Below are positions 3,528 through 8,634 of a stretch of 64,000 nucleotides of DNA, piece by piece. Each line of letters starts with the position of its first letter. Position 1 is the stretch's first letter. The stretch comes from Petrosia ficiformis (taxonomy: Eukaryota; Porifera; Demospongiae; Haplosclerida; Petrosiidae): contig OX345636.1 in NCBI GenBank assembly GCA_947044365.1, forward strand, positions 32,124,212 through 32,188,211, read 5' to 3'. The position numbers were made by a program, and so were the translations under genes. Under the pieces are notes generated by a model. That model ran no database searches, had not been told where the DNA came from, and saw only the letters and a program-made list of their open reading frames with translations.

Positions 3528-3567
3528 TCAAAGTATGGAGGGTGATTAGTGCAAAAATTCGTTAGTT

Positions 3568-3667
3568 CATTTGAGTGATTAATTTTCCATTTGAATGATG
3601 ACCATTTCATTTGAGTGATGATTATTTCATTTGTATGATTAATATTCCATTTGAGTGATGATTATTT
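3568..3667 (+). repeat. Left subterminal 20-bp tandem repeats (x5)
   Basis: Five successive 20-bp units of the form CATTTGAGTGATKATTWTTY, starting at 3568, 3588, 3608, 3628 and 3648, with small differences between units. The mirror array lies at 8481-8600. Repeated subterminal motifs like these usually bind transposase. Confidence 0.85.
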
Positions 3668-3698
3668 CAGAATTATATATATATTATAGTCCTCAATT

Positions 3699-3833
3699 CA
3701 GTTGATAATAAGTTGATAAACTGTTAGCAACAACCCAATATGACTATTGTTGCAATATACATAGTTTCAGAATAATAAACAAGTTGATAATAAGTTGATA
3801 AGTTGTTAGCAACAACCCAATATGACTATCATC
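3699..3833 (+). repeat. Direct repeat of about 50 bp inside left transposon end
   Basis: The stretch GTTGATAATAAGTTGATAA followed by TTAGCAACAACCCAATATGA appears at about 3700-3755 and again at about 3783-3833. It lies downstream of the HECT gene stop codon and outside the 20-bp array. Confidence 0.7.
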
Positions 3834-3884
3834 ACAATAGTTCTCAGCATGAACTGTTAGCAAATTGAATTGGTTAAGTAATTG

Positions 3885-6601
3885 CTAGGGTTGACCAAAA
3901 TATCCTTGTGAATTCAAAATGCAGTATCCCATTTTTGAGTTAAACTCTTCTTGTTCATTTGGAAAGTCAAGTGGAATCTTCAATGTCATTGCACATGTAG
4001 AAACACTTGGTAAACAACAGTCGTCAGAAAATATAATTTTAGGAACTATATCCTTAAATCCTAGTGGTGGAATCACATCTGATCCTGTCAGAAAAACCAA
4101 GATATCAGTTAATGATGGCATCTCTGTAGTCCCACCAGTTTCTGTAGTATAATATATAATAACATTAAAAATATAAAATAGTAATTCAGAAAACAAATCT
4201 ATTTTTTATAGTAATTAATACAATTACAGATGGATATGTATATAGTCATATGAGACATATGGCTATAGACTTAGTGTAACAGTCCATTCATACAATTAAT
4301 CACCTTCACAGGAAATCAAAAAGTTTATCCAACACATGGTCAGTTGTTCTTCAATAATTCTTTTGTTGCTTCCAGGAGCAGAAAGTTCAGCATTCCACAT
4401 ATCTTGGAGAAATGAAGCAGAAATGCATTCGACTTTATTGATGAAGAGAGGACGGAAGAGATTTGTATGACACTCAACAAGCATAGAAAACTGAAATGTT
4501 GATAAGCCACGACAGAGCTGCTCAAGTTCAGCCAGGCAGGAAAAAACTGTGTAATGCAGACACAGGGCAGACACAACCTTTTCACGATCAGAAAGTGACA
4601 AGTTAATATGAGGTTGGGTAACTCCACAATCAAAACGAAAACTGTATTCCTCACTTCCCATAATTTCACGAAAATCAACATCACTCTGTGCTGCATTAAG
4701 CTATAAAGAAGAAAGAGTATAATGAAACAGATATGAAACAAACTTTCTTTTGTCATACCTTTCTGATAGCATCCTGTATTTCTAAATCAGGTATGTCATC
4801 TATGGAAGGTTCAACATTTTCTATACCACCAATAATGTAGTCAATTACACATGGAGCAAAAAATGTTGGTGGTGGACCTCCATGAACAAATGACAGTGCT
4901 ATGATTTTCCCTATGATGTAGTAGACATTATCTTGTAAAGCAGCTGTGTTGTGCTGTAATATGCGTCTATTTAAAGGCCCACTCAACACTGCACTGTTGT
5001 TTGCAATGCTTTTTAACAGTAACATGAAAAATTCTCGACGAGGACCACCATCATCAATTCCACTCTCACCAAGAAAGGTAATTTGAATTGGTTTTCTTTC
5101 ATCAAACTTTCGTCCCAATGCCACAAGTGAGTCCTTCCATATATTATGCCGTCTGACGGTGATACGTAAAGGTTCAGAACTGTTGGAAAGGACACTTTGT
5201 CGATGTTTTAGTAAAACATTTTCCACTGATGACTCTTTTTCAATTCTACAAAAAGAAGCACAACATTTAATACATGAAATGTATATGCAAGTATAGTAAT
5301 GATCACTTACGTTTCACTGTTACATGTGCTGGTCTGTTGAATAGCATCTTGCAACATTACATCATCAAAGTCTGAATCGCTGTCAAACAGTTCTATAAAA
5401 TCACTGATGAAACAATTCAAGTCAATTTACCACAAAGTATCATCTCAATTACATACTTATAAGTTGTTGTGGTGCCCAGTTTTGATGACATATCAACTGA
5501 AGGTAAAGGTTTTGCACTAGCACCCTGATTTGAAAATGATGGGGTAGACGTATTCCTATATTACATAAAATTATTGAAATCATTATCAAATGTAACGATC
5601 ATGTAAAAACTAACCCTTTGTCTTCAGATGTATCAGTTGTTATAGTCACTTCTGGTAATTCAAACGTATCATTTGATACAGTCACTTCAGGTAACTCAAA
5701 TGTATCTGTTGATACAGTCACTTCCGGTAACTCATACTCATCTGAATCTTCCGTCTCCTTACCACATTTGGTCACATGCTTTCTAAGTTGTGGCAATGAG
5801 AACAATTTGGAACACTTTTGACAGAATTCCTCTGGTTCAGTACTGAAGACATCTTTTGATATGTCCTGTTTGAATTGTGATACACATAATAAGCCTAGAT
5901 TTGTACTCTAATTATAACATGCACTACATAATTATGATTAATAATTTAACTTGACAACCAACCTTCAGAGTCTCCTCGGGTATATCACATTGCAATGGTC
6001 TTATGAATAATTTAGCTTGGCGTAAGATATCTTTCAAATATGGAACAGTCATTCCTGAATCAGGACTCTCAATTTCAATTAAATTAGTTTTGGAGTGGTC
6101 TGAAAGACGAAGAAGTGTGTACCCCCCACATTTCAAAAGACCAGGAAAGTGATCAATACAGACATCATGGATGTGCTGAGGACCCCCATCACTATCAAAC
6201 ACCAACTGTTTTAAGCCAAGGCCTAGTTTTGCCAAATGCATTTTTTCTTCAGTACTCGGATTCGTTTCTTGATCACACAGTCTCAAACACAGTACGTCCT
6301 TCTTCCAAGTTTGCTGTGTTTTCTTCTTTCTCTTTGTGTCTCCAACCACTGACTTTGACTGTTTTCGTTTTGCTCCAATTCTCTCCTTGGATTGAGATGC
6401 GTGACCAAAAAGTTTTCTATGTTCTTCATATGAAGTGAGTGCAATGGTAGATGGTTGCCTTGACGAAGAACCAGCATTAAGCATACGCTCCGTATTTGTA
6501 GATGTCTGATGACTATTACCGCCTCTCGTGGCAGCTATTCGAAGAGCGGTTTCTACAGCACCCAACAGCAAGCTCTTGGCCCTATCTAGATCGTCAGCCA
6601 T
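3885..6601 (-). CDS. HECT-domain E3 ubiquitin ligase-like protein of the transposon
   Basis: Seven exons (6601-5963, 5865-5615, 5555-5457, 5403-5311, 5245-4759, 4700-4304, 4141-3885), all with GT/AG borders and consistent phase, encode about 740 residues without a stop. Residues 1-213 are basic and Ser/Thr-rich, with no family recognised. A C-x2-C...H-x4-C zinc finger lies at about 228-246, followed by three 12-residue repeats (ELPEVTVSTDTF type). An acidic stretch comes next, then a HECT domain from about 386 to the end: N-lobe motifs RITVRRHNIW, ITFLGESGIDDGGPRREFF and a YY-x-x-GK-IA stretch, and C-lobe LPSVSTCAMTLKIP with the catalytic cysteine at about 705. HECT ligases pass ubiquitin from E2 to substrate through that cysteine. 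The layout resembles fish G2E3-like genes, many of which are repeated. The ATG lies 58 bp from the ATG of the integrase gene. Confidence 0.88.
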
Positions 6602-6659
6602 GCTGTTTATTTAATTAAAAATTAATAAGGTTAATTAATGTTAATTTACTCTATTCACC
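6602..6659. promoter_or_regulatory. 58-bp bidirectional promoter region
   Basis: This is all the sequence between the two divergent start codons. It is almost pure A/T, with repeated TTAATTAA and AATTAAT words in both directions. Both 5' untranslated regions and the core promoters must fit here, unless transcripts start inside the opposite gene. Confidence 0.6.
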
Positions 6660-8250
6660 ATGGAAGAGCAATTATCTCAATACATTGAATTAATGTCTGA
6701 ATCTGTGAGAAGGGGTTTTGCCGATTATGAAAGGAATAGAGACCCTAAATGTCTTGACAGACTGATTTTCCATGTCTCGAGACTCTTACACTGCCTACTT
6801 ATGATTCCCTCATATCCCTTGGACTCCCTTACATCACTGGCCCAAAGTTTGGCAATTCTAAATACCATACAAGAAAGTTCACAAGGTACTGAAGTATTTA
6901 CTCAAAGAATTGCAGTAAGTATTTCTGGAAGAAGAGGAAGGCCTTCATATGAAATAAGTGAAGAACAGCTGGAGCATTTACTACATATTGGATTTACATG
7001 TACAAAGATAGCACATCTTCTAGGTGTTAGCGTAAGAACCGTTCGATACAGAATGCATGAATTTGGATTGTCTGTAAGAGACCTTTATACATGTATTAAT
7101 GATGCTGAATTGGATGGAATTGTAAGAGAAATCAAGCAAGAATATCCTTCATGTGGATATCGTATGATGTTGGGGTACTTAAAAGCTAGGGGAATTAGAG
7201 TGACTCAGTTGAGAGTCAAAGAATCACTTAATAGAGTTGACCCTGTTGGAGTTCTGTTGCGAAGGTCACAAGCTGTTCAAAGGCGTACATACAATGTTTT
7301 GTCACCTCTGGCTCTTTGGCACATAGATGGGAATCACAAGCTCATCAGGTATTTCTATATATATTCACTTGTTTAAAGTAAAAATCATAATCTCCTGTTT
7401 GGTGTAGATGGAGACTTGTCATCCATGGTGGTATTGATGGATACTCCAGAATACCAGTTTATCTTCATTGTAGCAATAATAATTGTGCCAATACAGTGCT
7501 ACAATTATTTCAAACTGCTGTTGAACACTATGGTCTGCCTTCTCGAGTTAGGAGTGACAAAGGTGGAGAAAATGTTGATGTTGCAATGTTTATGTTGGAG
7601 CATCCATTACGAGGTCCTGGGAGAGGTTCCATGATTGTTGGACGTAGTGTCCATAATCAAAGGATTGAACGATTATGGAGAGATGTCTTTACTGGAGTTA
7701 TAAAGTTTTATAAAGAGTTGTTTCTTCATTTGGAAGAGACAAGTTTATTAGATCCTGATGATGAGTTGTGTGTGTTTGCCCTTCATTATATCTATATCCC
7801 ACGCATAAATCGCCTCCTAGAACAATGGAAAAATGCATGGATAAATCATCCTCTTAGTACCACTCATAACACCACACCAAATCAACTTTGGACAGCAGGT
7901 CTTCAACAGTTGTGTCGTATAAACAGTCTGATATCAACAGAATTTTTTTCTGAGGTGATAATTAATACAATGTACTGTGCAAAATTATTTATAATTATGA
8001 CCTTGTTGACTCTATCCTCCTATTTACTCAGACTACTATAGAAGAGTATGGTATTGACTGGGAAGGTCCAGCACCTACTGACATGGATGAATCATCTGTT
8101 ATGGAAGTCCCAGTCACTGAATGTCCACTTTCAGCAGATGTCTTTCAAGTTATGCTTGACTCAATTGACCCACTAGCTCACTCTAACCATAATGGCATTG
8201 ATTATTATACTCAGTCATTGCAGTTTTTGAGACAATATGCACATCTTTGA
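6660..8250 (+). CDS. IS3-like integrase/transposase (DDE) of the transposon
   Basis: Three exons (6660-7348, 7408-7954, 8032-8250) with GT/AG borders and matching phase encode about 484 residues. Residues 89-140 hold GRPSYEISEEQ and a helix-turn-helix (IAHLLGVSVRTVRYRMHEFG). The integrase core has Asp223 (WHIDGN), Asp280 (RSDKGGEN) and Glu317 (HNQRIERLW), with 36 residues between the last two, close to the D-D-35-E layout of IS3 and retroviral-type integrases. The tail contains NHPLSTTHNTTPNQLW, typical of this group. It would cut and join the element ends in the nucleus. The start is the first ATG, directly across the spacer from the HECT gene. No stop or frameshift is seen. Confidence 0.9.
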
Positions 8251-8480
8251 AATAATTATAATAATTTTGTCAATACTTAAAAAATCATTGAGTATCTCAA
8301 CAAATTCTTTCTAATATAAATAGCAAATTCTATTTGTATATGGGACATGATGAAAAGTAAGTGGAAGATAAGATGTATCAGCTATATATACCACGTTGGC
8401 TATTTGTTTGAATAACTGACCTAATTACACTATCACTCAGATAAAATATTTTTAACTCATTTGAATTAATCATTGAAATA

Positions 8481-8600
8481 GAATAATCATCACTCAAATG
8501 GAATATAAATCACACAAATGAAATAATCATCACTCAAATGGAATATTAATCACTCAAATGAAATAATTATCACTCAAATGAAATAATCATCACTCAAATG
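8481..8600 (-). repeat. Right subterminal 20-bp tandem repeats (x6)
   Basis: Six 20-bp units of the form RAATAATCATCACTCAAATG end exactly at 8600, in inverse orientation to the array at 3568-3667. One unit has CACACAAATG in place of CACTCAAATG. Confidence 0.85.
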
Positions 8601-8634
8601 AACTAACGAATTTTTGCACTGATCACCCTCCATA

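What the first reader, a model, noticed from the sequence alone, without database searches (positions are those of the whole stretch)
3534..8634. Intact transposon that carries a HECT ubiquitin-ligase gene next to its integrase
Seen: near-identical 46-bp inverted ends, perfect 6-bp duplication TCAAAG, and two multi-exon genes without stops, one with D-D-E integrase residues and one with a full HECT domain including the catalytic cysteine (about residue 705). Known: HECT proteins transfer ubiquitin; 6-bp duplications and IS3-like integrases fit the IS3EU superfamily. Inferred: the HECT protein is a regular part of the element and may tag host repressors, or control transposase stability. A mobile element bringing its own E3 ligase would be a distinct host-control strategy.
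Basis: partly seen in the sequence, partly recalled or inferred. Interest (0 to 1): 0.88.

Follow-up and report, generated by a model that had tools for sequence, protein, structure and literature searches.

The report
Transposon carrying its own ubiquitin-ligase gene
An intact 5.1-kb eukaryotic jumping gene carries, beside its transposase gene, a second gene for a HECT protein predicted to be a ubiquitin ligase, and it sits inside the decayed remains of another HECT gene next to another transposase, so the pairing is likely old and would give such elements an unusual tool for acting on host proteins.

Summary
A 5,101-bp element (3534-8634) has 46-bp inverted ends (one mismatch), a perfect 6-bp target duplication TCAAAG and 20-bp subterminal repeats. 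It holds two divergent, stop-free multi-exon genes: a 484-aa DD36E transposase (Pfam rva_4, E 3.8e-82) and a 740-aa HECT protein with matches in both lobes and the catalytic cysteine C705. Ends and duplication fit the IS3EU superfamily. The transposase has 3,301 database relatives; the HECT protein has 11, seven of them named, from crinoid, oysters, fish, acorn worm and soft coral. The element sits inside an older, broken HECT gene whose pieces match in order on both sides of the insertion, and about 0.3 kb beyond lies a broken, diverged transposase of the same family. Two diverged transposase-HECT pairs in one locus argue against a one-off capture. Not shown: ligase activity, targets, copy number, selection between copies, the ends of the older element, linkage in other species. 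The genome search did not complete. In ten literature searches I found other cargo enzymes in fungal IS3EU, but no HECT. Verdict: real; a new variant of a known kind.

The parts
3528..3533 (.). target site duplication TCAAAG, left copy
8635..8640 (.). target site duplication TCAAAG, right copy
3534..3579 (+). left terminal inverted repeat (46 bp, one mismatch to the right one), TATGG terminus
8589..8634 (-). right terminal inverted repeat, CCATA terminus
3564..3669 (+). subterminal 20-bp repeats, left; possible transposase binding sites (inferred)
8468..8606 (-). subterminal 20-bp repeats, right; possible transposase binding sites (inferred)
6660..7348 (+). transposase exon 1 (N-terminal part with weak helix-turn-helix matches, first catalytic D)
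7408..7954 (+). transposase exon 2 (second D and E of DD36E)
8032..8250 (+). transposase exon 3, stop at 8250
5963..6601 (-). HECT gene exon 1; N-terminal domain predicted as ubiquitin-like beta-grasp (weak)
5615..5865 (-). HECT gene exon 2; CxxC...HxxxC finger-like motif and three 12-aa repeats
5457..5555 (-). HECT gene exon 3 (linker)
5311..5403 (-). HECT gene exon 4 (acidic linker)
4759..5245 (-). HECT gene exon 5 (start of HECT N-lobe)
4304..4700 (-). HECT gene exon 6 (rest of N-lobe)
3885..4141 (-). HECT gene exon 7 (C-lobe with catalytic Cys705), stop at 3885-3887
3294..3420 (+). older, broken HECT gene, part left of the insertion (profile positions 575-593 and 599-619)
8668..8843 (+). 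older, broken HECT gene, part right of the insertion (profile positions 647-668 and 680-723, with PKANTC cysteine motif)
9155..9638 (-). older, broken rva_4 transposase (profile positions 97-122, 274-328, 336-367, 365-414)

Best explanation
This is an intact IS3EU-type cut-and-paste transposon that encodes a DDE transposase and, on the opposite strand, a HECT protein predicted to be an E3 ubiquitin ligase, and the pairing of these two genes is likely old rather than a chance capture. The transposase would bind the inverted ends and subterminal repeats and insert the element with a 6-bp staggered cut (inferred from its ends and family). The HECT protein would take ubiquitin from a host E2 onto Cys705 and pass it to a nuclear protein that limits the element; I commit to a host factor of silencing or restriction as the most likely target (inferred, untested). 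Its N-terminal ubiquitin-like fold and zinc-finger-like motif would serve target or ubiquitin binding (predicted). Shown: anatomy, domains, relatives, and a second diverged transposase-HECT pair in the flanks. Inferred: co-inheritance of the pair, enzyme activity and target.
For: Intact ends, duplication and repeats. Open transposase and HECT frames. rva_4 E 3.8e-82, HECT E 5.5e-14. DDE columns kept in 19, 19 and 20 of 20 aligned rows; Cys705 kept in 10 of 11 rows, the eleventh being truncated. A profile of 11 rows matches 73 PDB sequences at E up to 1e-3, best AREL1 (E 1.7e-25), with WWP1 aligned over almost the whole HECT domain; the AlphaFold2 model of relative P0129 finds HECT domains first (E 4.6e-15). 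HECT relatives: 11 of 4,807 candidates, in widely separated animals. Older HECT relic spanning the insertion point: right-flank pieces E 1.7e-6 and 6e-5, left-flank pieces E 0.006 and 0.8, colinear; both left pieces (14.1, 8.9 bits) exceed the best of 500 shuffles (6.4), both right pieces (27.0, 20.7) exceed theirs (14.0). Relic transposase: 38.5% identity, E 4e-19. In 4 of 4 pieces the relic HECT scores higher with some animal relative than with the intact HECT, so the two pairs are distinct branches.
Against: Orientation differs: intact pair divergent, relic pair convergent. No inverted ends of the older element were found, and its HECT N-lobe is missing, so that it was one element is inferred. 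A full-length HECT search found one weak, HERC-like protein only. The sequence of the N-terminal domain does not match the relatives' (E 3.7; 4 of 300 shuffles reach its score). Copy number, dN/dS and linkage in other species are untested. Activity and target have no direct evidence.
Confidence: 0.68

Rival explanations
1. Self-control: the HECT ligase acts on the element's own transposase or on the transposase-DNA complex, to limit copy number or to clear the complex after insertion, rather than on a host factor.
For: Divergent genes with start codons 58 bp apart suggest joint expression; clearing of a transposase complex by protein unfolding is known for phage Mu (recalled, no call).
Against: No direct evidence for this target or for any other.
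Confidence: 0.25
2. Single capture: a host HECT gene was picked up once by this element and is a passenger without function.
For: Gene capture by transposons is common (recalled). The relic pair has the other orientation.
Against: A second, diverged HECT-transposase pair in the flanks; intact 740-codon frame over 7 exons with conserved cysteine; relatives in distant animals, two clusters with 31 and 55 member sequences.
Confidence: 0.1
3. The relic HECT is part of an ordinary host gene, into whose intron the element jumped, and the relic transposase beside it is unrelated to it.
For: No ends of an older element found; convergent orientation; HECT N-lobe not found.
Against: It would need an element with a HECT gene to hit a HECT gene by chance, with a transposase of the same family about 0.3 kb away; relic HECT is closest to the same set of 11 relatives.
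Confidence: 0.15

Closest known systems
[quoted passage not shown]
   Same: 6-bp target duplication, TA..TA ends, no HHCC motif before the core, first catalytic D within residues 100-300
   Different: a HECT gene on the opposite strand; HECT and ubiquitin are not mentioned in that paper's main text
Fungal IS3EU families with TET/JBP dioxygenase and alpha-kinase genes (PMC12730594: passages seen)
   Same: 6-bp duplications, ends TAYGG..CCRTA, and a second enzyme gene in opposite orientation to the transposase
   Different: cargo is a DNA demethylase and a kinase, in fungi; here a HECT protein
HECT E3 ubiquitin ligases (NEDD4/WWP, AREL1, HUWE1)
   Same: both lobes and catalytic cysteine motif
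   Different: about 20% identity or less to solved HECT domains in the model search of a relative; mobile, with another N-terminal part
Proteins named 'G2/M phase-specific E3 ubiquitin-protein ligase-like' in invertebrates
   Same: 4 of the 11 HECT relatives carry this name
   Different: listed as host genes; whether they lie in transposons was not tested

Membership tests
IS3EU | 6-bp target site duplication | tested here: met
   TCAAAG on both sides; rule from PMC10045372
IS3EU | TA..TA termini (TAYGG..CCRTA in rust-fungus families) | tested here: met
   TATGG..CCATA; rules
IS3EU | DDE transposase core without HHCC motif before it | tested here: met
   D223, D280, E317; no CxxC or HHCC pattern before the core; rva_4 E 3.8e-82
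IS3EU | transposase groups with IS3EU/GingerRoot in a tree | not tested
   no Repbase reference sequences were at hand
HECT E3 ligase | HECT fold with N- and C-lobe | tested here: met
   Pfam E 5.5e-14 in two stretches; profile against PDB; model of a relative
HECT E3 ligase | catalytic cysteine in the C-lobe | tested here: met
   Cys705; C in 10 of 11 rows, one truncated
HECT E3 ligase | ubiquitin thioester and ligase activity | not testable with these tools
   needs biochemistry
Ubiquitin-like (beta-grasp) N-terminal domain | beta-grasp fold | tested here: inconclusive
Standard transposon cargo (fixed component of a family) | same two genes between the same ends in several copies | not tested
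   The genome search gave no answer in 16 tries

The most novel reading that the evidence does not exclude
Across animals a whole branch of IS3EU transposons carries its own HECT ubiquitin ligase as a standing second gene, and many genes now annotated as 'G2/M phase-specific E3 ubiquitin-protein ligase-like' in fish, oysters, crinoids and acorn worms are the ligases of these elements, used to remove host proteins that restrain transposition.
Probability: 0.45. Interest if true: 0.8.

Novelty: new variant of a known kind. Interest (0 to 1): 0.62.

Why it matters
DNA transposons are known to carry enzymes that act on DNA or chromatin, such as the TET/JBP dioxygenases of fungal elements (PMC12730594, passages). 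A self-encoded HECT ligase would be a post-translational route: the element could mark host proteins, or its own, for change or removal. It would also relabel a set of host-annotated ligase genes as transposon genes and offer a testable system, a compact 5.1-kb element with both genes open.

Tried and rejected
Looked for further copies and relatives as DNA. The element's end pattern gave 0 matches in viral contigs and 0 in genome contigs. Transposase, exon and alignment queries gave no confirmed relative in viral contigs (1, 43 and 11 stretches matched a pattern, none confirmed) or genome contigs (26 stretches, none confirmed). One transposase exon against phages: no match. Within the window the ends occur at these two sites only.

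A full-length HECT protein search found only one weak HERC-like protein; the search on residues 378-740 found 11. The sequence match of the N-terminal domain to that of four relatives was not significant (E 3.7; 2 of 300 shuffles higher and 2 equal), so I claim shared topology only as a weak model result. A UIM-like pattern is present in 4 of 11 relatives but not in the window protein (5 to 17 of 500 shuffles per protein show one), so I make no claim of it here. Pfam's HECT cut-off is reached by 8 of 10 proteins scanned; P0128 has no match and P0131 is below it. Ends of the older element: none better than shuffles. A shared splice phase of the last HECT intron in relic and intact gene was considered and not claimed, as the relic's acceptor does not fit the phase on the sequence as read (printout, by eye).

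Literature: ten searches gave no paper linking a HECT gene to IS3EU; I saw listings only, apart from passages of two papers and one section of one.
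Full report
Observation. The window is eukaryotic DNA by its genes with short GT..AG introns. At 3534-8634 lies a 5,101-bp element whose ends read TATGGAGGGTGAT(T/C)AGTGCAAAAATTC inward from both sides; the first 46 bases differ at one position, and TCAAAG flanks both ends. The 27-base end occurs at these two sites only, none expected. Behind the ends lie 20-bp repeats, 5 left and 6 right (expected 0.30 in all), in arrays also seen by the repeat finders.

Genes. On the plus strand, exons 6660-7348, 7408-7954 and 8032-8250 give a 484-aa transposase without stop. 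It matches Pfam rva_4 (E 3.8e-82), rve below its cut-off, and helix-turn-helix families weakly. D223, D280 and E317 are kept in 19, 19 and 20 of 20 aligned rows, the window protein and 19 of the 120 listed relatives; 36 residues lie between D280 and E317 in 16 rows and 34 in 4. On the minus strand, seven exons from 6601 to 3885 give a 740-aa HECT protein. A 754-aa model with another acceptor tied on my score. The start codons are 58 bp apart and the genes run away from each other.

The HECT domain. Pfam HECT matches in two stretches (E 5.5e-14). Alone, the protein matches solved HECT domains mainly in the N-lobe (best E 1.2e-6). A profile of 11 rows matches 73 PDB sequences at E up to 1e-3, best AREL1 at 1.7e-25, and aligns to WWP1 over almost the whole domain. 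C705 is a cysteine in 10 of 11 rows; the other row is truncated there. A model of the relative P0129 (pLDDT 68.4, pTM 0.48) finds NEDD4-type HECT domains first (E 4.6e-15; TM-score 0.47 by target).

Relatives. The transposase has 3,301 relatives at E up to 1e-3 among 7,993 scored candidates; 120 were listed, and the organisms named there are animals: sponges, corals, acorn worms, a priapulid, a mussel and fish among them. The nearest named one is from the sponge Corticium (57% identity over 78%), so the source may be a sponge; this is a guess. The HECT region has 11 relatives among 4,807 candidates: crinoid, two oysters, two fish, acorn worm, soft coral and four unnamed. Four carry the name 'G2/M phase-specific E3 ubiquitin-protein ligase(-like)'. 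Two clusters hold 31 and 55 sequences, which may reflect repeats or several assemblies. Whether these relatives lie next to transposases could not be tested.

The flanks. This decides most against a single capture. tblastn of the transposase finds a second copy at 9553-9179 on the minus strand (38.5% identity, E 4e-19), broken by stops; it matches the family profile at E 7e-17 and 3e-16, with weaker pieces at 1.7e-4 and 0.012. On the plus strand just right of the insertion, 8668-8843 matches the HECT profile in two pieces (E 6e-5 and 1.7e-6), including PKANTCCNVLSLP with the cysteine. On the left, 3294-3350 and 3355-3420 match the preceding part of the same profile (E 0.8 and 0.006; SPEGSN motif). 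The four pieces are in order, positions 575-593, 599-619, 647-668 and 680-723, with the 5.1-kb element between the second and third, about where the intact gene has its last intron. In 500 dinucleotide shuffles of each flank, no shuffle reached either left piece (best 6.4 against 14.1 and 8.9 bits) or either right piece (best 14.0 against 27.0 and 20.7). Each of the four pieces scores better with some animal relative than with the intact HECT protein. So the element jumped into an older HECT gene of another branch, whose 3' end lies about 0.3 kb from the matched part of a transposase of the same family.

Limits of this. The older pair is convergent, the intact pair divergent. I found no ends for the older element and no HECT N-lobe to the left. 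That it was one element is therefore an inference.

How it likely works. The transposase would bind the ends and repeats and insert the element with a 6-bp stagger. The HECT protein would accept ubiquitin on Cys705 and pass it on. I think a host factor that restrains the element is the most likely target, by analogy with fungal IS3EU elements that carry TET/JBP dioxygenases thought to help escape from methylation (PMC12730594, passages). The element's own transposase is the main rival. No result here separates the two.

Comparison with the known. IS3EU: complete families have TA..TA ends and usually 6-bp duplications, no HHCC motif, and the first D 100-300 residues in (PMC10045372, section 3.3 read); all are met. 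Placement in a tree was not tested. In rust fungi the TET-carrying IS3EU end TAYGG..CCRTA, as here. The main texts of both papers mention neither HECT nor ubiquitin. Ten searches of the library brought up no HECT-carrying IS3EU (listings). Repbase itself was not available.

Not done.

Noticed in passing
window 44515-46044 (+): Single 509-aa open frame with two PHD fingers in a duplicated unit (44733-45077 and 45078-45431, 90% identical) and an OTU-type protease domain just at its Pfam cut-off: a possible deubiquitinase in the same repeat-rich window.
   Followed up: partly
window 12267-13094 (-) and 20565-20993 (+): tnp2-type transposase fragments (Transposase_21, E 4.8e-11, and E 2.3e-4 below cut-off), pointing to EnSpm/CACTA-like elements.
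   Followed up: no
window 17545-17961 (-): Start of a DDE_Tnp_1_7 (piggyBac-type) transposase, below the curated cut-off.
   Followed up: no
window 9773-9860: Three 28-30 bp repeats beyond the relic transposase, possibly subterminal repeats of the older element.
   Followed up: partly
window 51367-55008 and 61141-62035: Several dispersed repeats of 200-330 bp, 85-93% identical, unidentified.
   Followed up: no
P0123, P0124, P0128, P0129 (relatives): UIM-like ubiquitin-binding pattern just before the HECT domain in 4 of 11 relatives.
   Followed up: partly
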